A stretch of DNA of 64,000 bases from NCBI GenBank assembly GCA_010356995.1, contig ML996704.1:604404-668403 (forward strand). The letters run 5' to 3'. A program made the position numbers and the translations under genes. This document shows, in pieces, positions 29,588 through 53,089 of this stretch. Each line of letters starts with the position of its first letter. Position 1 is the first letter of the stretch. Under the pieces are notes generated by a model. That model saw only the letters and a list, made by a program, of their open reading frames with translations. It had not been told where the DNA came from and did not search any database. The stretch is from Trichodelitschia bisporula (taxonomy: Eukaryota; Ascomycota; Dothideomycetes; Phaeotrichales; Phaeotrichaceae).

Positions 29588-32051
29588 GAGATAAGGAAGT
29601 CAGCACGACGTTTGTTCACATAGAGCTGTCTTTGCGGTCATGGGATGGCATAATTGTACTACTAGAGCAGTTGTTTATGGCGTTGGGCGCATGTGTCCTG
29701 AAGGTGCCGGTTGTATCTGCGACAAGTTCCGGGCACGCATTTGGAGACATGCGGGCTCGGGCGTTGGGCAACTGACATCGCTGACTCGAATGCGCCGGAG
29801 GATGATCATATTTCGGCAGACGGCAATGAATGAAACTAGAGTTCGGCGTACGGAAAGGGGAATCGGTGGAGCGGGGTTTACCTATGGCATTTGCGGCACA
29901 TCCCTGAGATCTTAAGTCATGTTAATGTTTAAGTTGTTACTGAAACTGACTTTCTTTTTCAAGAAGCTAATGCCAATCGTCGGAGCTCGAAGTTCAGAAA
30001 AGTCCCCTATTTCGCGCTTCACCAATAGGGGCTGAATCATCCTGTTTGCCGCCGAATACGACGGAGACAAAGAGTGGCGGAGGCAGAGCGAATGCGTTGA
30101 GCCTGCATGCGCGAAGTGCCGACCTCTCCAGTTAAGCGCCCACGTCTGCCTTGTGGCCTTGTCCTCCGCACGCAGCGCTCACCAAACCCGCGTCATATGT
30201 CCAGAATGCATGAGAATGCTTTGGTAGATGGTTGCCATGCGCTATCGTTAGTCAGGTCATGGTTGCAGGTTATCCAGCGTTGGCCACTGACATTCTCATT
30301 ATATTCCCCGTTGCTCGTCATAGTTATAATGAGGGCGAACCCTGGGCCAACGTGGTCCAGTGGGACAAACTACAAACTTGGTCACTAGGCAATCCCACAG
30401 GGCCACACAAACTGGACAGGTCCCGGGTTCGACCCTCGATATACACAATAGAAAACCCCTATCCTTCAGCTGGCCCCTGAAGAAAGGGGGTTTCGTAGCC
30501 CATAATGGGTAAGCTTTTTGCTTCCTTATGACCTTTTTTGATGGATGTAACTTGGTTCATTTGGTTATGTCCCAACTTGCTGTGGTGCTTGACGAAGAAG
30601 TCGTTGTTATCTCATCTTTTTGATGTGGCGGTTGGGACAAACACCGCCGCCAATGCTACGCAGGCCTTGCTCCACTGCACACAACTGAACTTCATACATG
30701 AAGCATACGCAGGTCTTGCTATTCTGCTTTCCTACATTACCGGGTCTGTTCTCCTATCCTGAGCTGTGTGCTGGTTTTTGGCCATGATGGCTCCCCTGAC
30801 GGCTCCCGAAAAGGGGTTAGTCACTTCGATGGCGATGTTTCGCTGCCGCCTAACACCTTTGGTTTAACATCGTCCCAAGATCAAGTTCGCCGTGGACGTG
30901 ATTCTTTTCCAGGCTTCCCTACCCTTTTGTCAGGAGCAACCTATCTAGCGAAGCCTCAATGAAGCGAGGGATTGATTTTACCCGTTGAGCGCAATCACCC
31001 CGAGCAGGACCTGCAAAGCGATTTCATCTACGATGGTTGCCGACTATACATGTGGGCAAACTGTGGAATCGGAATTTCCACGCCGATCCTCCTCGCCGGA
31101 TTACCGCGAGGACAGGCCTCGCTCCATTACCACGTTTGGAGGCCTCCCGAGCCGGACTCCATGTAATATATGTGCCTTATGCCTGATGCTTTTCTCGATT
31201 TGGTGCACTCAAAAGAATATCTCAGATTTAAGCGATATCTAACTTTGGACTTTATACATGTTCCCAGTATGACCATGAAGGAGGGGAACGAAAGCATCTT
31301 AACTCGCTTGGGTCAATCCCTTTTTCTTTTGCATTGATCGCAACTTCCCATCTGTCAGTACTTGCCTACTGTCCATGGATGACGCAACGCAGATGTGGGC
31401 AGACGATGTGGGGGACCACAAAATTCTTTTCATCTCGCTCTGTTAATCAAGCATCGCTTTTCTTTTGAGTCTTTCATCATAGTTACTCGGTCAAGTTACG
31501 AAGACATATTCGTGAAAATGCATTTGTGGTAGCATCGTAGGAGTGTTCGGCCAAAAAGGAACTAGGCTAGCCGTAGCAACCATTATTGGCCAGGCTATAA
31601 TGGAGCATACGGTACTTTAAACTGATCCTTGCATTTAACGCCTGTTAGAGCACCTACCAAATGCCACAATGATGTGAGGGAAGGTCCAGCTAAATGAGCT
31701 CCGAATGTTATCCACCGCACGATGTCAATGCCTCTGTATCCGAGAGAGTCCTGGAGTTAAGGACACCAGTTGCTCCACCATACGGGTAAAGGCACGCGTT
31801 GGCGGGTAAGCCTTCAACCCCCAAACCCCAAACGCGGATAAGGATTTCAACGAGGAAGCGTAAGATATTCAAAGATACAACCAGAAAGAATGGGTACCGG
31901 ATGGATTAGAAAAGCAATTACAGTAAGCATCATGTATTAGCAGTCGCGCGCCTTCACGCAGGTTCCCAGCAAAGTCGTTGGTATCAGAAATAGTTATACA
32001 TAGTCCGAGACGCCGCAGAATCGTGCCCATGCTGCTTAAACGGTGGAAAAG
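29588..32051. other. 2.46-kb gene-poor stretch
   Basis: No frame has recognisable content. Base composition is more AT-rich and irregular than in the flanking genes, consistent with old, decayed sequence. It holds the tRNA-like/SINE-like segment described separately (30345-30500). Frames at 30538-31242 lack coding bias and any domain. Confidence 0.5.
30345..30500 (+). repeat. tRNA-like segment, possible SINE head
   Basis: An A-box-like element (TGGTCCAGTGG, 30353-30363) is followed 62 bases later by a B-box-like element (GGTTCGACCCT, 30426-30436). Around the B box a T-arm-like stem pairs at four of five positions, but no acceptor stem closes it: the base runs at the two ends are not complementary, so this is not a functional tRNA. 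A CCCC/GGGG hairpin lies just downstream (30474-30490). A tRNA-derived SINE or tRNA relic fits best; no target duplication could be defined. Confidence 0.3.
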
Positions 32052-42463: not shown

Positions 42464-44459
42464 ATGCCGCCCAAAAGGTCTCCCTCCCCCCGCCTCAAGC
42501 ACCCTCCATTGCCCCACCTCAGAGACCACACCCCGTTCTCTTCAGTCTCCTTGCCCCGCTCCCCCCCCCACTCCTCCCCCAGCCCCAGCCGCCCCGGAAT
42601 CCCCATCGAATTCAGCAGCTCCCCCCCCCGCACCGCCCCACCACCCTCCCGTTACGGCCCCCTCCCCCCCCGCCTCCCCACCATGGTCTCCATCCCAGAC
42701 TGCTCCCCAGACCGCGCCCCAAAGCGCCCCTACACCGGCACGGACCCGCCGCCCAAGCGCGCCAGAGGCGAGTCAGGCCGCCCAGTTCGCCCCCCAGAGC
42801 GCCTCTTCCCCAAAGCCGGCAAATTTGGGCCCAAGCTGCCGCCGGTCCCGACACAGCCGCTCACGTTTGGGCCGAGTTTGGATCTAAGGTGCAGGCCTAC
42901 GGCGCTGATACCGGAGGGGTGGGGGGCTGAGATGGCGCATGGGCGGACGCCTGGGCACCCCGTGCGGGTTAGGGGGTCGAGGGTTGCGCGGCGGGGACGT
43001 GCGTGGGGGAGTAGGACTGATCCGTTTGTGCCGGATTGGGAGAATATACCGCAGCCGGGGGATGCGGCGGCGTTGGCGGCGTGGAGGCCGTATGCGGATG
43101 ATGTTGCGAAGGGGGAGAGGGTGTTGAGGATTCTGCCGCATGGGGATGATGCGGATAAGTTCTGGTGGCGGCCGGTGAGGTTTCTTGGGACGTCGGATGG
43201 GACGGGAGTTTTGTGGGTTTGGGTTAAGTATCTTGCTGGGAGGCATGATTGGATTCAGGATGTGAGTTTTGGGGTGCGAGTTTTGTGGTGGGATGGGTAC
43301 TGACGGATGCTAGCGCATGGCGGTTAAGGATTCAAGACCGCAACCTTGGAACGACCCGACGGCGTGGATGACGAATACTATGGACGTCCCCATGGAAGCC
43401 AGTATCTTGAAATCGCTCAACCTTTCCGGGCCTTGTGGCAAGTACTTCCCGCAGCTGCGCGGGTTCCGCATCATGCGACACGCGCGATGTGTCCGGACGA
43501 GCATGGAGTACGCGGCGTACGGGAACCTCCACAACTTCAGAAGATACTTCGTGAACGGGATAGTGCGGGATTACCGATACATGTCTCCCGCGCCGCCGGA
43601 TGGCGGCGATTTGTTCCCGACACAGTTCGTATTCCACTTTTTCATGGAACTGAGCCGCGCGTGCATCGCCATGAATAATCTCGGCATCATCCATCGCGAC
43701 ATCAACCCGTTCAACGTGTACCTCATGGAGGATGCGGAATCGAAGTACGGGTTCCGGGCGGTGCTTGGGGACTTTGGTGCGGCGGTCATCGAGGATGACC
43801 CTCGTTTCGCCAATCCCCAGCACTTTGTGGGTGTGTATGCCGTCGGATTCCATGCCCCAGAGCAAGCTACCACCGTTCCGCCCCGCGCACCTTGGCGGTT
43901 AACGGACCGGACAAATGTGTGGGGCATAGCGATAACGGTTTACGACATGATCTCTTGCGATACCCGAACCCCACCTCAGGGGCACTGGGGTGGATTGCCC
44001 GAAGGACATCTCGCCCACCAGGTCACTTGTGAAAGAGTACTTGAGCCAGCCGGCCTGTGGTCCAACAGTGCCCAGGCACATCATTACCGACACGTTGCCA
44101 TCGCTCTCGTTACGTGCTTGAACGAGTACCCAGGGAACCGGCCCACAAGTACAAAACTTCACCAGGTCCTCCATGACTGGGTGTTGAATCCCAGGACCAA
44201 TGAGCCGGACGACATGGAGACAGAGGGCACCGCTATCAAGCTCCTCAGGTACCACGAACTGTGGCGGATGGGAGAAAGTCTTCAATTGGAGGAGACCCGG
44301 GCAAAAGAGATGGAGCTCTACCGCAGAAGGGTTATACTCTACGTTCAGGAACAGAGGATGAGAGCGGACCACGGGGAACCCCCGTTGGACGAGCCGCTTC
44401 CAGAACCGCCCGCCTCCACTCACAGTGATAATAGTCCGAGGTCATCTCAGGGGTCGTAG
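42464..44459 (+). CDS. Divergent serine/threonine protein kinase
   Basis: Two exons (42464-43261, 43314-44459) give 647 residues. Residues 1-130 are Pro/Ser/Arg-rich. A conserved pre-kinase part follows (WRPVRFLGTSDGTGVLWVW), then RMAVKDS with a candidate VAIK-type Lys near 271, MEYAAYGNL (hinge), IIHRDINPFNVYL (catalytic loop, Asp 395, Asn 400), GDFGAA (metal Asp 419) and GFHAPEQ (APE). The active-site residues are all present, so it may be active, but the glycine-rich loop is poor. The plan matches a large ascomycete family of uncharacterised kinases with a fungus-specific N-lobe. Substrate unknown. The gene borders the tandem repeat array on its 3' side. Confidence 0.82.
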
Positions 44460-44813
44460 TCCTCTGGGGACGGGGAGCCCAGTCCATATCCCTCTTGATA
44501 GGCAGGATATCTGGTCGCTCTCACGGTCCTTTCGTGTCTTGTCCGTCCGCTTGGCCACACGAGTTCTCTGATGGGATGCCGCTTCTTCTCGCCTCTCTCC
44601 CGCACTGAACCTCCGGGAGATCTTCTGCTGTCGCTCTCATTGGAACCAATGGGATGTAGGGAGCAATCTCCCACAATTTCAAGTTGTTTGGTCCTGTACT
44701 CTCGGTGGACTTAGGCGTGGCTTGTTTGGAGTATCTTGCTTTGGCGTTTTGGCGTTTTGGCGTAGGCCGTGTAGTTGCAATCAATGGAATAGACATTCGG
44801 GCACGAAATCTTT
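44460..44813. other. Spacer before the repeat array
   Basis: 354 bases between the kinase stop and the first clear repeat unit. It contains three direct GGCGTTTT units at about 44737-44763. No gene recognised. Confidence 0.5.
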
Positions 44814-44904
44814 GGATGCAGTTGACGGTTCTTGGTGTAAGAGGAATGGGTGGTTCCATAAATGCCGTTATGCTGACCGCAGGCCAAAGGTCTGGCAGAG
44901 GTGT

Positions 44905-45150
44905 GTCCCATGGCGCACTGGAAGGAGGCTGTCAGTCGCATTTGTCTTGACATAAGCGCTCTATGACAATGATAGGATGGCGGGTACCACTCCGAAAAGC
45001 TATGGATGCTAGGAGGCCTAGCAGGAAAGTTCGAGTCTCAGAGGCAGAAGGCGACTCGAGGATGGGCAAATGCGGCTGACAGTGGTATCTCTGACCAGCT
45101 GTAGCCTGGGATTCATCTCCCCCCTCCCGCGGCCGGGGAGGGTTTTTTTT
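44905..45150 (+). ncRNA. Candidate structured RNA, unit 1
   Basis: A-box-like TGGCGCACTGG at 44911-44921 and B-box-like AGTTCGAGTCTC at 45028-45039. Helix P1: CTGTCAGTCGCATTTG (44929-44944) pairs with CAAATGCGGCTGACAG (45067-45082), 16 pairs with one G-U. Inner hairpin P2: TCGAGTC (45031-45037) with GACTCGA (45053-45059). End hairpin CCCTCCC/GGGAGGG (45122-45128, 45136-45142) followed at once by eight T (45143-45150), a strong RNA polymerase III stop. Ends of the transcript are guesses. It does not match 5S, U6, SRP or RNase P RNA as I know them. The A-to-B spacing of about 106 bases is longer than in tRNA genes. Confidence 0.4.
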
Positions 45151-45374
45151 GCTTTTTGGCTTCACTCTTTTGAGGGTGATATATGCGGACGATGTGAAGA
45201 GTCGGGTGGGTTGTGGTGGCTCGTAGTTTCTCACTGTGGTGGATGTCAGCCTGCGCGCTTTCCTTGCCTAGCAGCTTCGTCGTTGAATGCAGTTGAAATT
45301 ATTGATATAGCACTGATAGTGATTCCAGAAGTACCTTTATGTTGACCGCTGGACTGAAATCTGGCAGAGATGTG

Positions 45375-45615
45375 TCCCATGGCGCACTAGGAGGAGGCTG
45401 TCAGTCGCATTTAACCTTGACAAAGGCGCACTATGTCAATGATAGGAGGGAACAAGCCCGTCCGAAATACAAGAATGCTAGATGACATGCCTAGAGAGAA
45501 GTTCGAGTCTCAGAAGCAGAAGGCGACTCGAGGACGGGCAAATGCGGCTGACAGTAGCTCAGGCCGACTGCGACATGGGATTCATCTCTCCCCTCCTGAG
45601 GGAAGGGATTTTTTT
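45375..45615 (+). ncRNA. Candidate structured RNA, unit 2
   Basis: A-box-like TGGCGCACTAG (45380-45390), B-box-like AGTTCGAGTCTC (45500-45511). P1 strands at 45398-45413 and 45539-45554; the last pair is lost because the 5' strand ends in A. P2 is intact (TCGAGTC with GACTCGA). The end hairpin is weaker (CCCCTCC with GGAAGGG, one bulged A) and is followed by seven T at 45609-45615. Confidence 0.4.
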
Positions 45616-45864
45616 GCTCTCTGGCTTCACTCTTTTTGGGATGACATATGCGGACAAGATGAGGAGAGTGAGATGTGTGGTGGTGTATTGCGGCTTCCTG
45701 ATGTGTTGGGTCGCGGCTTTCAACTGTGGTAGGTGGCGCCCTGTATGCCGTCCCAACCAGGCAGTCCCGTTGTTGAACTTAGTTGACGTTATCTGGTGTA
45801 AAGAAAGGGTGACTGAATAAATGCCCTTATGTTGAATGTTGGCCAAAAGTCTGGTAGAGATGTG

Positions 45865-46097
45865 TCTTATGGTGCACTGGGAGGCGGCTGTCAGTCGCAT
45901 TTGACCAAGACAAAAGCATACTATGACAATGAACAGGATGGTCAGGCCAATCCGATGAGAATGCTACCATGCTAGCAAACAAAGTTCGAGTCTCAGAAGC
46001 AGAACTGTGACTCGAGGAGCGGCGAATGCGGCTGGCGGTCTCTGACCGGCTGCATCGTGGGATTCATCTCTCCCCTCCTTCGGGAGGGGGCTTTTTT
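45865..46097 (+). ncRNA. Candidate structured RNA, unit 3
   Basis: A-box-like TGGTGCACTGG (45870-45880), B-box-like AGTTCGAGTCTC (45983-45994). P1 strands at 45888-45903 and 46023-46038: several bases of the 3' strand differ from units 1 and 2 (GGCGG for GACAG and others), yet all 16 positions still pair through G-U wobbles. P2 intact. The end hairpin is CCCCTCC-TTCG-GGAGGGG (46072-46089), a UUCG tetraloop, followed by GC and six T (46092-46097). Confidence 0.4.
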
Positions 46098-46235
46098 GCT
46101 TTTACTTCACTTTTTGGTGGACGACGTCGCGGGCGAGATGAGGGGACGCTGGTGGGTGGGTGGTGGGTCGCGACTTCCTGCCGTGGTGGTGGTGGGGGGT
46201 GGTACTCTGCGTGCCTGCCTTGTCTAACAGCCTCG

Positions 46236-46322
46236 CACAAGGGTCAAACGAAAAAGTTATGTCCCCCCATGCCAGCAAAAGCTTGGGAGAGGGGTAACAT
46301 CACTTTTTTAATCGACCCTTGG
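46236..46322. mobile_element. 87-bp MITE-like insertion
   Basis: Absent from the same place in units 1 and 2, so it is a clean insertion into unit 3. Imperfect terminal inverted repeats of about 23 bases (CAAGGGTCAAACGAAAAAGT at the left against the reverse of the right end, roughly 18 of 23 matching), flanked by a 3-bp direct repeat TCG (46233-46235 and 46323-46325). Size, inverted ends and 3-bp duplication fit a non-autonomous DNA transposon; the family cannot be named from one copy. Confidence 0.6.
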
Positions 46323-46424
46323 TCGTTGAATGCAGTTGAAGTGATCTGGTGCAACAGCATAGGCCATTCCATAAGTGCTGTTATGTTGACCCCTGGCCAA
46401 AATGTCCGGCAGAGCTGTCTTCCG

Positions 46425-46787
46425 TAGCGCACTGGGAGGAGGCTGTCAGTTGGATTTGACCCTGTCAAATCTGACTCGGACTCAAATGGATGGATGGCGC
46501 GGTCAGTGCCAGGTTGTCATCAGACAACCCGCCCATCGAGGCGAGGATACCAAGTTTTCATCAGACAACCGCCCAGCGCGGCGAGGATACAAAGTTGTCT
46601 TCAGACAAACCGCCCAGCTAGGTGAGGATACAGAGTTGTCATCAGACAACCAACCCAGCGAGGCGAGGATACCAAGTTCAAACCGCCGAATGAAAGGCGC
46701 AAGAAACTTACGCAGATAAGGCGGGCAGTGCTCTGACCGGTTGCACCTTGGGATCCATCTCCCCCCTCTTCGGAGGGGGGCTTTTTT
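46425..46787 (+). repeat. Diverged unit 4 with hairpin and minisatellite
   Basis: A-box-like TAGCGCACTGG (46425-46435) is kept, but the P1 5' strand has drifted and a new perfect hairpin GATTTGAC/GTCAAATC (46453-46471) replaces it; the B-box/P2 segment is gone and a 41-bp minisatellite sits in its place. The terminal hairpin is the best in the array: CCCCCCTC-TTCG-GAGGGGGG (46761-46780), then C and six T (46782-46787). Confidence 0.6.
46513..46675 (+). repeat. 41-bp minisatellite with hairpin in each unit
   Basis: Four tandem units starting at 46513, 46554, 46594 and 46635 plus a fragment at 46676. Each unit begins with a small palindrome GTTGTC-ATCA-GACAAC (imperfect in units 2 and 3), followed by a CCGCCCAGCGAGGCGAGGAT-like block and an A-rich end. 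The unit is not a multiple of three, so it is not coding. Confidence 0.85.
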
Positions 46788-47258
46788 GTTCTTTGCTTCA
46801 CTCTTTTTTGGAGGATACTTCGCGGGTATGGGGACCGGGGTGGACGTGTGGTGGATCGCGGCTTCCTGCGGCCGTTGGTGTGACGTTGCGTGGCAGTCTT
46901 GTCGGGTGCGGTTTTCCGCACCTGCACCCTTGCACTGGGCTCGAGCCTCAGCGGTGGCAATGGTTTCCGTGAATTGTGAAACGTAGTCGCGTTGCCACAG
47001 ATAGTCTCTTTTTACATGCTTCGTGGTGCGGAGATCATGAGCTTGAGCGGGAATTGATAATGGCGGTGTTGATACGAATCTGGGGCGGGAGATGAATTCG
47101 CGCTGAGGTGACAGTGCGGTGTGATATCATGCGGCGAAGCTCAACCGCGAACCACGCTCAGAGAGCGCAAGCAAATGCAAGAGAAACTCACTATACTCCT
47201 ATCCAAATAGTGTAACCCAAAATTGGCCGGTTCAACATTTCCCTCTGCGCCACATCCG

Positions 47259-49002
47259 CTACGAACTCCGCGACCCATACGGCTCAAACGGAAACACAGC
47301 CGCCACAATCGCCATGACAATGTACAGCGCAGCGCAGATATAAATCGGCACTGGCGTCGAAGTCTGCACGCGTTAGCTCGCTCCGAGAGCCGGGGATGAC
47401 ATACGTTAGCATAAGTCGCAATGACAGCGCTCATAATCCCCATGACGCGATTTAACCCAATCGCAATACCATTCCCCGTCCCCCGATGCGCCGACGGCAG
47501 GACCTCAGGCGTATACGCATACAGCGTGGCGTAGTAAATATTCTGTCCCGATCAGCCTCGTCCCCACCTCAGATGCAGCAGCAACTCACCAGGCAAAAGC
47601 TAATCGCGCACGTAAACCCCAAATTCTGCGCCGCAGTCCGCACCTGCGTATAACAGAAAAAGAACACCATGGTAATCAACGCACCAATCACCATCGTCCC
47701 CCTTCTCCCCCAGAAGTATTTGGAAGCACACATGTACCCCGCAAGCACGGGCCCGAAGATACCGCACGCGTTGACGATGGCGTAGTTGCGCCACGTCGTG
47801 AATTGGCTTCCGTCGCCGAAGTCCGTCCCGCGGGTTTTGAGGTACGTGGGGAGGAAGACGTTGTACAAAGGGTAGGCGAGCCCGATCAGCAGCCATGAGA
47901 ACCAGATTAGGGATGTGGAGATTCCGACTCTTCGTGTTTCAAAGAGGCCTTTGAGGTGGATTAGGATTTCGGCGAAGGAGATCCGCGTGCGTGCGTGGAC
48001 GTTGTGGACGCGCCCTGTTGCTTCGCCCGTAACGCCGCAGGCGGTCAGGCGCGCGAGGGTCAGGCTACATGGCCGGTTGTATTTCGTGGCGATGCCGGTG
48101 AGGACGTCGACGACGGCTTCGTCCCGCCCCTCGGTTACTAGGAACTTGGGCGTTTCTTTGAGACGCACGACGGTGACGCGCAGGATGCTCATTACGAAGA
48201 CGAGGGCGCCGTTTGCGTACCACACGTACCGCCAGCCTTGGTTGTTGGCGCGGGTGCAGGGCCCGGCCTCGGGACAGCTGAAGTTCGGCAGGAAGGCCCA
48301 GGCGAAGAGGCCGGCGATGAGTTGGCCGAGACCTGGTGGGTTAGATATTGGGGGATTTGGGGAGGGGAGGGGGACGCACCCCACCACATGGCCATGAGCG
48401 TGAGGAGCCATTGCTTCTTGCTCGGCAGGTACTCGAGGAAGACGGCTGTGTCGAGGACGAGGTTGCCGCCTGAGCCGAAGGCGCTGAGGCAGACGAATAG
48501 GCCGAGGACGACCCAGTTTGGTGACGCGCCGGCTACGATGGCGAAGATGGAACTGATGAGCAGCGAGTAATTAAACGCCGTGCGGCGCCCGATTATATCG
48601 GCTGTTGTGCCCCAGAACAGCGCGCCGACGAGCATGCCCACGTACGCGGCGATGGTGAGGCCATTGTGGAAGCTGGGCTTGAATTCCAGGGCCGCTTGGC
48701 TGGCGATGATGGACTGGACGAGGAGGAGGAGGGAGTCGGTTGCGTAGCTGGCTTGTTAGCTGGGTTCGATACATGCAAGGGACGCACCCGAAGCCGTTGA
48801 GGCAGAAGAGCTTCGCGTGATAGGGCGTGAAGCCGATTTCATCGATTGCGTCGTTGATCAGGTGGATCTTGGCGTTGAGGACTGGGTCGAGTGATTCGCG
48901 AGAGAGGAGGTCGGCGCCGGAGCTGACGCTGGTCAGCTCGGCGCGGTGCTCTTCTGCGTCTTTCTCGTCTTCGCGTTGGGAGTCGGCGGGGAAGTCTGCC
49001 AT
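47259..49002 (-). CDS. MFS transporter, sugar-transporter/SV2-like
   Basis: Five exons (49002-48788, 48747-48380, 48332-47590, 47541-47407, 47363-47259) give 521 residues. Acidic cytosolic N terminus, then GFTPYHAKLFCLNGFGYATD, TM2-3 with the MFS motif GTTADIIGRRTAFN, FGSGGNLVLDTAVFLEYLP, a central loop, LIWFSWLLIGLAYPLYNVF, and the family motif YTPEVLPSAHRGTGNGI near TM10-11. About 12 membrane segments. This motif set belongs to the fungal SVOP-like/sugar-porter branch; substrate unknown. Its first intron is only 40 bases. The gene converges on the repeat array. Confidence 0.88.
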
Positions 49003-50325: not shown

Positions 50326-53089
50326 ATGGCCACCGAAGTCCCCGACCCTCACTCCCTCGAGTCCTGGGAGGACGCCTTCCAATACCCTATCCCCGTTGTG
50401 CGCAAATTGGGCCAACAGCTGCGCAGCCATGTTGAGGAGAACCGGCAGAAGCTCCGCAACTCGGTCGGGTGCGTTAGTTGTAATTGATGTGGGGATTGCA
50501 GCTAATGGGAGCAGTGTCAGCTACCGCGACTTGCTGGGGACCGCGGAGCGCATCGTCGAGATGGACGAGCAGATGGAGCAGGTCGAAGCTATACTCGGGA
50601 AGGCGGGGCAGAAGTGCAACTCCGGCGCCGTGCAACGTATCTTCAACAATTATTCACGGTTTCAGACGGAGCTTTATGCTAGAGGTGCGGTGCAAAGAGT
50701 TTATATGGTCACTGGCTGATGGGTAGACTCGGAACAAAATGCGCTCGCGTCGCATCTCGCCATCCTGCAGAGCTGTCCGACGATCATATCGCGCCTTCTG
50801 AAGGGAGGGAACTCGTCGCTACTGGCGGCCAAAATCCTCGTCTTCTCTCGCTTGACGCACAAAACACTGGCTCAGACCCCGGATCCGCCGCCTTTGCTCG
50901 ATGCCTCGCGCCAGCGGCTTGCTTCCTTGCGGCGGAAGTTGTTGAGATCCATTGACCGGAGTCTTCAGAGCGTGGACAAGGAGACGGACGACTTGGTGGA
51001 AGACATGTGCGCATTCTCCCTAGCGACAAGCTCAACGCCGACGGATGTACTGCGCCACTTCCACCATGTGAGGCTCGAGGCAATCGGCTGGCATTTCGAG
51101 CAAGAAGACGACGGCAACGCTCATGTGCTCGCCGCTATGCGGCTCCTCATCCAGACGCTGCAGGACTCGCAACAGATCTTCCCCAAACGGCTGGCAGCCG
51201 CTCTAGCGAAGCTCAAAGAACACCCGCTACTTCAGCAAAAGGACGTCCGCTCTGTATCGCAGCTCAGCCTCGACATCCACGGGAGGTGGATCGCAGATGA
51301 GCTGCGGAATTACACACCGTGGCCGCGCCATGACGAGCTGCAAAAGGCCGAGGCCGACAAGCAGCTGAAGGCCTGGTCCAAACAGGCGCTGGCCCGTTTC
51401 CTCGCAGGCCTGAAGTCTGTACTGGTCAAGAATCGCGAGTTCCGAGACGTCATGCGGCTGCGCAAGGACGTGTTGGAGGCGTGGCCATGGTCAACCCGTC
51501 GCCTTCCCGGCATCGAGCCGTCGGACGTGCTTGAAGAACTGCGCGAGCTGTTCAATGGACGGCTTGGGGCGATTATCCGGGATCGTGCACGCGAGGTGGA
51601 GCAGATCCCAAAGGCGATTTTGCAGGAACTGGACTCGCCCCAGACTCCACAAACTTCATACTTGTGGGACCAAGATGTGATCGCCATGGACTACAGCAAC
51701 GGGGCCACCGCCTTCAAGCAAGCAGTCCTCGACAAGTATCAGGGTACCAACCCCTCAATTGCGCATATCGCAGCTCTCTACGATGCCTGGCTCGGCAACA
51801 TCACCTCGACACAAGCTCTACTCAAGGAAATGCGGGACACGCACTGGGATGACGAGCTGGACGACTCAGACTCGGACCTTGAATTCGACTCGCTACAAAT
51901 TCAGCTAAGCCAGGACGATCCGCGCCTGCTCGATCAAGCCCTAGCTACCACCCTCGAAGCCGCCTCGACATCCCTTCACTCCAGTCTAAGCAACCTAATT
52001 ACCCCTCTCACAGCCGCGCCGCCAAACCCCAACACCGCAGCTTTCTTACTCCGTGTCCTACGCGCCCTATCCCAGCGCGCCCCTCCAGATCCCAAAGCCA
52101 GCCCCAGCGCCCCCCTCTCCACCCTCGCCACACCATTGCACCACGCCCTCGCCACAGCCGTCACCACCCCCGCCCTCAACGCATTCAGCACCTCCCTCCA
52201 CCGCATGCTCACCGCCCGCACCTTCCCCGCCGTCGTCCTCTGGGAAGGTAACCCGCCCCTCCCAACCCAGCCCTCGCGGCCCACAATCCTCTTCCTCAAA
52301 ACCCTAACCCAGGCCATGAGCGCCAGCGGCCCGGACCTTTGGGCCGCCGGCGCGCTCACCGCTCTCCGCACTATATGCCTCGAGTGGATAGCAGAAGAGC
52401 TAGATCCTAGGGCCAGTCGAGCCCCGGCGTTGACATCGGCGACGGAAGACGCTCCCAGTAGCCCCGCACTATGTATTGAGAACTCTCGTGCAGGCGCGGT
52501 GGCACCCAACGGGCGTCTGGGTGGGGAGGGGGGGGGATGTCCACCAGGGCGCGGAGAGCTAGAGCGGTTTGCTGGGAGTCCGTCTCGTGGCCCGGGAGGT
52601 GGCGGAGGGCGGGGTGGATTAGGGAGTCTAGGTGGGTTGGGGGGGAGGGGTGAGGGGGGTGCGGAGGGGGAGGAGCGTCTGAGTGGGGAAGGTCCTGCGG
52701 GGGATAGTGCGGGCGAGAAGGGGAGCGAGGAGGGACAGGAGGTGATTCCGGATCAACGTCCGAGTGATGAGAGACGGGGGGTGATTGAGGATCAACGTCC
52801 GAGTGATGAGGGACGGGGGGTGATTGAGGATCAACGTCCGAGTGATGAGGGACGGGAGGCGAATCGGGATGCACAGGCGGTGAATCTGGATGCTCAGGTG
52901 CAGCTTCTATTTGACGCTGCGTTTCTGCGGTATGTGATGCACGGGAGCCCAGGTCCAGCGGCGGAAGCGACGGGACTGCCGCTAGAAGCGGGGCAGTGGG
53001 AGAGGATGGCCCGGATGGCGGGGGAGTACTGGCGGCGGACGGGGCTGTTGTATGGGTTGTTGGGCGGGTTTGAGGAGGGCCGGATTTAG
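50326..53089 (+). CDS. COG1: Conserved oligomeric Golgi complex subunit 1
   Basis: Three exons (50326-50468, 50521-50684, 50727-53089) give 889 residues. N-terminal hallmark ESWEDAFQYPIPVVRKLGQQ, then NSVGYRDLLGTAERIVEM across intron 1 and helical repeats throughout; the C terminus ends with VQLLFDAAFLRYVM and GEYWRRTGLLYGLLGG, typical of Cog1. The COG tether handles retrograde vesicles at the Golgi. Residues about 670-825 (52430-52890) are a Gly/Glu/Arg-rich insert not expected in Cog1, with three tandem 13-residue repeats (VIEDQRPSDEGRG). The frame stays open and the conserved C terminus resumes, so it is tolerated. A long antisense frame overlaps this part. Confidence 0.9.
52742..52858 (+). 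repeat. Three in-frame 39-bp tandem repeats in COG1
   Basis: Units at 52742-52780, 52781-52819 and 52820-52858 encode VIPDQRPSDERRG and two VIEDQRPSDEGR(G/E) copies. 39 bases keep the reading frame. Units 2 and 3 are nearly identical, suggesting recent expansion by slippage. Confidence 0.9.

What the first reader, a model, noticed from the sequence alone, without database searches (positions are those of the whole stretch)
44814..46905. Tandem family of structured, possibly Pol III-transcribed RNAs
Four diverged units of about 470 bp all keep an A-box-like element and a GC-rich hairpin directly followed by a run of 6-8 T. Units 1-3 also keep a B-box-like element, a 16-bp long-range helix and an inner 7-bp hairpin. 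Coding frames are not conserved between units. I know of no RNA family with this layout. Alternatives: an old tRNA-derived SINE amplified in tandem, or a MITE whose inverted ends form the helix.
Basis: partly seen in the sequence, partly recalled or inferred. Interest (0 to 1): 0.8.

Follow-up and report, generated by a model that had tools for sequence, protein, structure and literature searches.

The report
Tandem Pol III-type hairpin RNA genes
A fungal chromosome stretch carries four old tandem copies of what looks like a small non-coding RNA gene read by RNA polymerase III, folding into a long rod; it matches no catalogued RNA family, but nothing yet shows that the RNA is made or what it does.

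Summary
Four diverged head-to-tail units (44800-46905, +) lie between genes of a filamentous-ascomycete-like genome. All four have, in order, an A box (exact in 3, one mismatch in the 4th), a B-box core, and a GC-rich hairpin followed by 6-8 T. This A-B-T6 module, defined after seeing the units, occurs 5 times in 64 kb: these four plus a tRNA-like element at 30353-30540; shuffled windows average 0.025. In units 1-3 the '16-bp helix' is the inner part of a 45-pair interrupted rod joining the RNA's two ends around a variable loop that carries the B-box hairpin. Arms and B box are more conserved than flanks and loop; folding beats shuffles. Compensatory change is NOT demonstrated: pairing tests are null. 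Unit 4 does not fold into the rod.

No Rfam match; no homologue in the collections scanned, which hold no fungal genomes. Best reading: four paralogous Pol III type-2 non-coding RNA genes, most likely (moderate confidence) small-RNA hairpin precursors like Neurospora milRs, otherwise rod-shaped RNP RNAs. SINE and MITE origins are disfavoured.

The parts
44800..45270 (+). Unit 1 (A box 44893-44903, B box 45028-45038, T8 45143-45150)
45271..45760 (+). Unit 2 (A box 45362-45372, B box 45500-45510, T7 45609-45615)
45761..46225 (+). Unit 3 (A box 45852-45862, B box 45983-45993, T6 46092-46097)
46318..46905 (+). Unit 4, most diverged (A box with one mismatch 46407-46417, relaxed B box 46675-46685, T6 46782-46787); rod not the minimum-energy fold
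44898..44947 (+). Unit 1 rod, 5' arm; pairs with 45064-45119 (longest unbroken helix 20 pairs, G-U included, 44928-44947 with 45064-45083)
45064..45119 (+). Unit 1 rod, 3' arm
45366..45412 (+). Unit 2 rod, 5' arm; pairs with 45540-45589 (longest unbroken helix 16 pairs)
45540..45589 (+). Unit 2 rod, 3' arm
45856..45903 (+). Unit 3 rod, 5' arm; pairs with 46023-46071 (unbroken helices of 18 and 13 pairs)
46023..46071 (+). Unit 3 rod, 3' arm
45030..45060 (+). Unit 1 B-box hairpin (8 pairs); homologues 45503-45531 and 45985-46016; mostly lost in unit 4
45122..45142 (+). Unit 1 terminator hairpin before T8
45590..45607 (+). Unit 2 terminator hairpin before T7
   Evidence: sequence
46072..46089 (+). 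Unit 3 terminator hairpin before T6
46761..46780 (+). Unit 4 terminator hairpin before T6
44853..44883 (+). Conserved block upstream of the unit 1 A box with a TATA-like ATAAAT (homologues 45322-45352, 45812-45842, 46366-46396; ATAAAT itself only in units 1 and 3); possible upstream promoter element
   Evidence: (family D6); role inferred
46513..46678 (+). 4.1 x 41-bp minisatellite expanded inside the loop of unit 4
46237..46320 (.). Foldback (MITE-like) insert of about 80 bp between units 3 and 4 (borders by eye), not part of the RNA gene

Best explanation
Four paralogous non-coding RNA genes made by tandem duplication, each with an internal (type 2) Pol III promoter. Inferred steps: TFIIIC binds the A box, which overlaps the start of the rod's 5' arm, and the B box 131-138 bases downstream (268 in unit 4). 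Pol III starts about 10-20 bases before the A box and stops in the T run behind the terminator hairpin, giving a + strand RNA of about 250-275 nt (about 390 nt in unit 4). In units 1-3 the two ends pair into an interrupted rod of about 45 pairs that closes a fast-evolving loop carrying the B-box hairpin. Most likely downstream role (about 0.35 on its own): the rod's 16-20-pair inner duplex is cut by Dicer-type enzymes into small RNAs, as for Pol III-made milRNA precursors of Neurospora. Next most likely (about 0.3): the rod itself works as a protein-binding RNA. Shown here: sequence, motifs, conservation, fold energy. Inferred: transcription, polymerase, processing, function. The confidence given is for 'Pol III non-coding RNA genes', not for the downstream role.
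For: The A-B-T6 module occurs in 4 of 4 units and once elsewhere on either strand of 64 kb; 200 dinucleotide-shuffled windows average 0.025, 5 of 200 hold one and none holds more. The module's limits were set after seeing the units, and the first A-box letter was relaxed to T or C so as to include unit 4. Columns invariant in units 1-3: arms 88 of 116, B-box hairpin 31 of 35, against 138 of 271 upstream, loop and downstream columns (Fisher 6e-6 and 2e-5; class borders drawn by me from the fold). Unit 4 keeps the B core although its identity to the other units in that stretch is only 0.50-0.56. Fold z -3.77, -4.58, -6.69, -3.58. Alignment fold of units 1-3 z -7.55 on the + strand and -4.94 on the - strand, 0 of 300 column shuffles as good on either. 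Terminator-like rows in 44500-47200: 8, some overlapping, against 2.6 in shuffles; 6 of the 8 rows lie at the four unit terminators. Compatible but not discriminating: no run of 4 or more T between the assumed start and the terminator in units 1-3, one run of 4 in unit 4; shuffles of units 1-3 mostly lack such runs too.
Against: No expression data. Given the substitutions, rod pairing is not kept better than chance: leave-one-out p 0.28 (unit 4), 0.47 (unit 1), 0.73 (unit 2), 0.07 (unit 3), and the terminator stem gives p 0.50-1.0; 227 of 500 shuffles reach the observed covariation score. Excess of G-U over A-C changes in units 1-3 is 13 to 3 over all pairs (p 0.011) and 9 to 3 in the rod alone (p 0.07) on a structure chosen on the + strand; on the - strand structure the counts are 10 and 10, so the strand signal is modest. 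The - strand of unit 1 also folds better than shuffles (z -3.08). Unit 4's minimum-energy fold lacks the rod. The A-box pattern is loose (49 matches on the + strand of the window). No homologue outside the locus was found, and none could properly be sought.
Confidence: 0.68

Rival explanations
1. Rod-shaped RNP RNA (a sub-case of the same Pol III gene reading): the ~260-nt RNA acts uncut, binding proteins through the rod and its internal loops (as vault, Y, VA or 7SL RNAs do), not as a Dicer substrate.
For: Terminal rod with recurrent internal loops in units 1-3; both arms equally conserved, 48 of 63 and 40 of 53 columns invariant; a compact terminator hairpin directly behind the rod.
Against: No match to any Rfam family. 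The loop and unit 4 evolve fast, unusual for a core RNP RNA (recalled).
Confidence: 0.3
2. tRNA-derived SINE amplified in tandem, now decaying.
For: Internal A and B boxes and a T run. A tRNA-like element with textbook A and B boxes does exist at 30353-30540, so this genome may hold SINEs. Local alignment of that element (30340-30545) to unit 3 is reached by only 6 of 200 shuffles.
Against: The repeated unit includes about 80 bp before and about 120 bp after the putative transcript, which retroposition of the RNA would not copy. No other copy in the window. A-B spacing 131-138 in units 1-3 and 268 in unit 4; no tRNA called. For units 1, 2 and 4 the same local alignment is reached by 36, 156 and 65 of 200 shuffles, and the profile search did not list that element at E up to 10.
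Confidence: 0.1
3. MITE or other foldback DNA element whose inverted arms make the helix.
For: Inverted repeats form the rod; a foldback insert sits next door (about 46237-46320).
Against: The arms lie inside the unit, not at its ends; similarity between units runs past the arms' outer borders on both sides. The MITE idea does not predict the conserved B box and terminator. Target duplications were not tested.
Confidence: 0.05
4. Not transcribed: an old tandem duplication of a regulatory or structural DNA segment; boxes and T runs kept for another reason (e.g. a TFIIIC-only site) or by chance.
For: No expression data; pairing-preservation tests are null.
Against: The full module with terminator is far above chance, and arms are conserved above flanks. 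A TFIIIC-only site would not need the hairpin and T run.
Confidence: 0.17

Closest known systems
Neurospora crassa milR-1 to milR-4 (Pol III-transcribed milRNA precursors; PMC3547838, passages and section 9 read)
   Same: Stem-loop precursor RNAs of a filamentous ascomycete with a T run immediately downstream of the milRNA sequence; TATA-like elements and putative A and B boxes are marked in its Figure 2 (legend read).
   Different: milR-1 itself has no predicted A or B box and depends on TATA-like elements. Here A and B boxes are in all four units (one A box with a mismatch), the array is tandem, the loop is about 80 nt up to the B-box hairpin, and there is a separate terminator hairpin. No small-RNA data here.
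Fungal mi/milRNA loci re-analysed in PMC9757828 (passages read)
   Same: Intergenic hairpin loci; for its most conserved locus, milR22 of Cordyceps militaris, the paper reads the pattern as selection for the duplex region.
   Different: Those rest on small-RNA reads; none were available here.
7SL/SRP, Y and vault RNAs (recalled)
   Same: Pol III RNAs whose ends pair; vault and Y genes are clustered.
   Different: No Rfam match to any family.
tRNA-derived SINEs (recalled; e.g. Mg-SINE of about 0.47 kb)
   Same: A and B boxes, similar unit length.
   Different: Tandem with flanks, no dispersed copy in the window; no tRNA-like head found.

Membership tests
Pol III type-2 (internal promoter) RNA gene | A box then B box downstream of the start | tested here: met
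   Order and spacing in 4 of 4 units; A box with one mismatch and B core relaxed in unit 4. Consensus patterns are recalled; the start is inferred.
Pol III type-2 (internal promoter) RNA gene | T-run terminator and no earlier T run of that length | tested here: met
   T8, T7, T6, T6; longest earlier run 3, 3, 3, 4
Pol III type-2 (internal promoter) RNA gene | Transcribed by Pol III with TFIIIC occupancy | not testable with these tools
   No expression or ChIP data at hand
milRNA precursor (Neurospora type) | Stem-loop precursor with long duplex | tested here: met
   Unbroken helices of 20, 16 and 18 pairs in units 1-3; not in unit 4
milRNA precursor (Neurospora type) | Mostly Dicer-dependent small RNAs, mainly from one arm | not testable with these tools
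   No small-RNA data
milRNA precursor (Neurospora type) | Targets complementary to the arm | tested here: inconclusive
   Best exact match of the arms of units 1-2 outside the array in this 64 kb is 13 nt (sense) and 12 nt (antisense); whole genome not held
Any Rfam 15 family (4227 models) | Match to the covariance model | tested here: not met
   0 matches at gathering score in 64 kb; best inside the array at relaxed threshold is rnk_pseudo, 26.6 bits against a gathering score of 55
tRNA-derived SINE | tRNA-like head with tRNA-like A-B spacing | tested here: not met
   A-B 131-138 and 268; no tRNA called
tRNA-derived SINE | Dispersed copies with target-site duplications | tested here: inconclusive
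   No other copy in 64 kb; genome not held
MITE | Inverted repeats at the ends of the unit | tested here: not met
   Arms are internal; similarity extends beyond them in all units
MITE | Target-site duplications | not tested
   No empty site or related strain at hand
Structured RNA under selection for pairing | Compensatory or pair-keeping changes above chance | tested here: inconclusive
   Null with 3-4 paralogues

The most novel reading that the evidence does not exclude
An undescribed family of Pol III-made rod RNAs in filamentous ascomycetes, kept as a tandem array of diverged paralogues with an unusual gene plan: A box in the rod's 5' arm, B box displayed as a hairpin in a variable loop, and a dedicated terminator hairpin. 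It would be either a promoter-defined class of milRNA genes or a new RNP RNA of fungi.
Probability: 0.45. Interest if true: 0.7.

Novelty: new member of a known kind. Interest (0 to 1): 0.52.

Why it matters
As far as I recall, few Pol III RNAs beyond the universal set are described in filamentous fungi. A tandem family with both internal boxes and a long duplex would give a directly testable set of four genes, both for how Pol III hairpin precursors arise and diversify by duplication and for the milRNA-versus-RNP question. The fast-changing loop and unit 4 (minisatellite in the loop, B-box hairpin mostly lost, B core and terminator kept) offer a natural test of which parts matter.

Tried and rejected
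Known RNA family: Rfam on 43500-48000 at relaxed threshold (6 weak matches, all below gathering score) and on the whole window at gathering score (0), nothing credible. Chlorobi-RRM (E 0.003, 29.5 bits against a gathering score of 45) lies outside the array in MFS-coding sequence; the two SNORD38 matches lie in the minisatellite on the - strand.

Protein coding: ORFs listed; the recurring short frames (MRLT.., GFISPL..) switch frame between units, so rejected (by eye, no dN/dS).

tRNA: none by ARAGORN or with introns allowed (two runs). A third run with a very low score threshold gave 291 calls, too many to mean anything; only about the first 48 were printed, so I did not check whether one falls on the array or at 30353.

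Homologues: exact-pattern scans (20-27 letters) of viral contigs and genome contigs, and blastn of one stretch of unit 2 against plasmids, all 0. These collections are viral, bacterial/archaeal and plasmid, so the absence means little. The metagenome collection was capped at 0 and not asked.

Covariation: column shuffles are strongly positive, but they only show that an inverted repeat is conserved; the tests of pair-keeping are null. Strand asymmetry by G-U against A-C changes: positive on the + structure, not on the - structure (10 to 10 for units 1-3, 14 to 11 for all four); kept as weak.

Unit 4 with the minisatellite left out still does not fold into the rod (z -2.42).

Literature: eight searches. 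The search for six stretches of the arms and B-box hairpin found 0 papers. Listings were partial for three: 25 of 86 papers shown, 15 of 16, 10 of 45. No paper describing such an array was seen in what was listed; only PMC3547838 and PMC9757828 were opened (passages; section 9 of the first). Most subscription journals are not in the library.

Sense or antisense partners of the arms inside the window: none longer than 13 nt (arms of units 1 and 2 only, best 12 rows printed).

Full report
Setting. The window is eukaryotic and fungal: Trs120 (E 1e-261), GH63 glucosidase, DUF3684, MFS and a GPI ethanolamine phosphate transferase are encoded (10 of the 58 ORFs listed were scanned, 6 of the 10 matched Pfam), and the best of three solved relatives of the GH63 fragment is from Chaetomium. 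No whole genome is held. That it is a filamentous ascomycete is my inference. The array lies in an intergenic stretch between a protein-kinase-like ORF (43317-44459, +) and an MFS gene on the - strand (47569-48411).

The array. Direct-repeat search, MAFFT and nhmmer agree on four head-to-tail units of about 465-590 bp and no fifth copy in the window. Units 1-3 differ from each other at about 30-38% of flank positions and 14-21% of arm positions. Unit 4 has a 41-bp minisatellite in its loop and is preceded by a foldback insert of about 80 bp.

Pol III signals. Each unit has an A box (unit 4 with one mismatch), a B box core and a T run of at least six in that order: A-B distances 135, 138, 131 and 268, B-T distances 115, 109, 109 and 107. 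The near-constant B-T distance, despite the expanded loop of unit 4, fits one kept 3' block of B box, 3' arm and terminator. In the whole window this module (A box first letter T or C; RGTTCRANYC 20-300 bases on; T6 within 10-150) occurs five times on + and never on -; 200 shuffled windows average 0.025, with at most one each. I set these limits after seeing the units, and whole-window shuffling does not keep local composition. The fifth occurrence (A 30353, B 30426, T 30534) has textbook tRNA-type boxes and is probably a tRNA-derived element (judged from recalled consensus, no tool called it), which suggests that the scan picks out plausible Pol III promoters. Its local alignment to the units is unremarkable for units 1, 2 and 4 (36, 156 and 65 of 200 shuffles as good) and marginal for unit 3 (6 of 200). 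The B core is rare: 10 GTTCRANYC on +, 1 on -, four of the 10 here. Unit 4 differs at several bases there yet still fits the relaxed consensus.

Structure. Individually all four RNAs fold better than shuffles (z -3.77, -4.58, -6.69, -3.58); the - strand of unit 1 does too (z -3.08; other units not tried). In units 1-3 the fold is one rod: the 5' end, from inside the A box, pairs with the bases just before the terminator hairpin, through inner helices of 20, 16 and 18 unbroken pairs. The RNAalifold consensus of units 1-3 has 72 pairs, 45 of them in the rod (helices 1 and 2, 91.4% and 98.1% of cells paired). Against 300 column-shuffled alignments the energy z is -7.55 on + and -4.94 on -, and with unit 4 included -7.40 and -3.38; no shuffle was as good on either strand. 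Sliding the partner by 1-3 columns drops pairing from 94.9% to 39-44%. These show a real, conserved inverted repeat that folds better as the + strand.

What is not shown. Selection for pairing as such. When the structure is taken from the other units and the substitutions of the left-out unit are simulated, rod pairing is not kept more than expected: 31 of 38 pairs (p 0.28, unit 4), 44 of 49 (0.47, unit 1), 38 of 42 (0.73, unit 2), 35 of 37 (0.07, unit 3); the terminator stem (5-7 pairs) gives p 0.50-1.0 (only pairs standard in all training units and ungapped in the tested unit were counted). In one search, 227 of 500 shuffles reach the observed covariation. G-U against A-C changes in units 1-3 are 13 to 3 over all pairs and 9 to 3 in the rod on the + structure but 10 to 10 on the - structure. 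Unit 4 at minimum energy folds otherwise. Three or four paralogues are too few for a strong test.

Conservation. Invariant columns in units 1-3: A box with 5' arm 48 of 63, 3' arm 40 of 53, B-box hairpin 31 of 35, terminator 20 of 28, against upstream 39 of 81, loop 36 of 74, downstream 63 of 116. Arms against background p 6e-6, B box against background p 2e-5. Conserved duplex and boxes with a drifting loop are what a hairpin RNA gene with an internal promoter should show. The class borders were drawn by me from the fold.

What it is and does. Tandem duplication of a Pol III type-2 RNA gene explains the features: duplicated flanks, internal boxes, T-run terminator, conserved rod. SINE retroposition does not explain the duplicated flanks, and a MITE does not explain boxes, terminator and internal arms. 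For function I prefer hairpin precursor of small RNAs because Pol III hairpin transcripts with T runs are established in a filamentous ascomycete (Neurospora milRs, PMC3547838, passages and section 9 read) and because the inner duplex is, with the B-box hairpin, among the best-kept stretches. In that paper milR-1 lacks predicted A and B boxes and uses TATA-like elements; units 1 and 3 here also carry a TATA-like ATAAAT about 35 bases before the A box. Fungal hairpin loci conserved between species have been described (PMC9757828, passages read). A rod-shaped RNP RNA is nearly as likely. Neither is tested.

Novelty. No Rfam 15 family matches, and eight literature searches (three of the listings partial) showed no such array. 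Fungal genomes could not be searched, so 'new' means not in Rfam and not in those listings. As a kind, Pol III non-coding RNA genes are known; I file this as a probable new family of that kind.

On re-reading the calls I corrected wording and some counts (flank lengths, RNA length range, partial listings, the unit 3 alignment to the 30340 element, the post hoc limits of the module scan, the - strand controls).

Noticed in passing
window 30340-30540 (+): tRNA-like element with textbook A box (30353) and B box (30426), then T5 and T6 runs (T6 at 30534); no tRNA called and no Rfam match at E up to 3. Looks like a tRNA-derived SINE or tRNA relic; single copy in the window.
   Followed up: partly
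window 46237-46320 (borders by eye): Foldback insert of about 80 bp with imperfect terminal inverted repeats AAGGGTC...GACCCTT (fold -34.7 kcal/mol), MITE-like, single copy in the window.
   Followed up: partly
window 46513-46678: 41-bp minisatellite, 4.1 copies, built round a GTTGTC-ATCA-GACAAC hairpin that is imperfect in some copies, expanded inside the loop of unit 4.
   Followed up: partly
window 52723-52856: 39-bp tandem repeat, 3.4 copies at 91% match.
   Followed up: no
window 43317-44459 (+): ORF upstream of the array with a protein-kinase match over residues 102-283 of 380 (Pfam Pkinase E 5e-7, 29.7 bits, just below its cut-off of 31.7; PK_Tyr_Ser-Thr 24.5 bits, above its cut-off of 23.1).
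   Followed up: no
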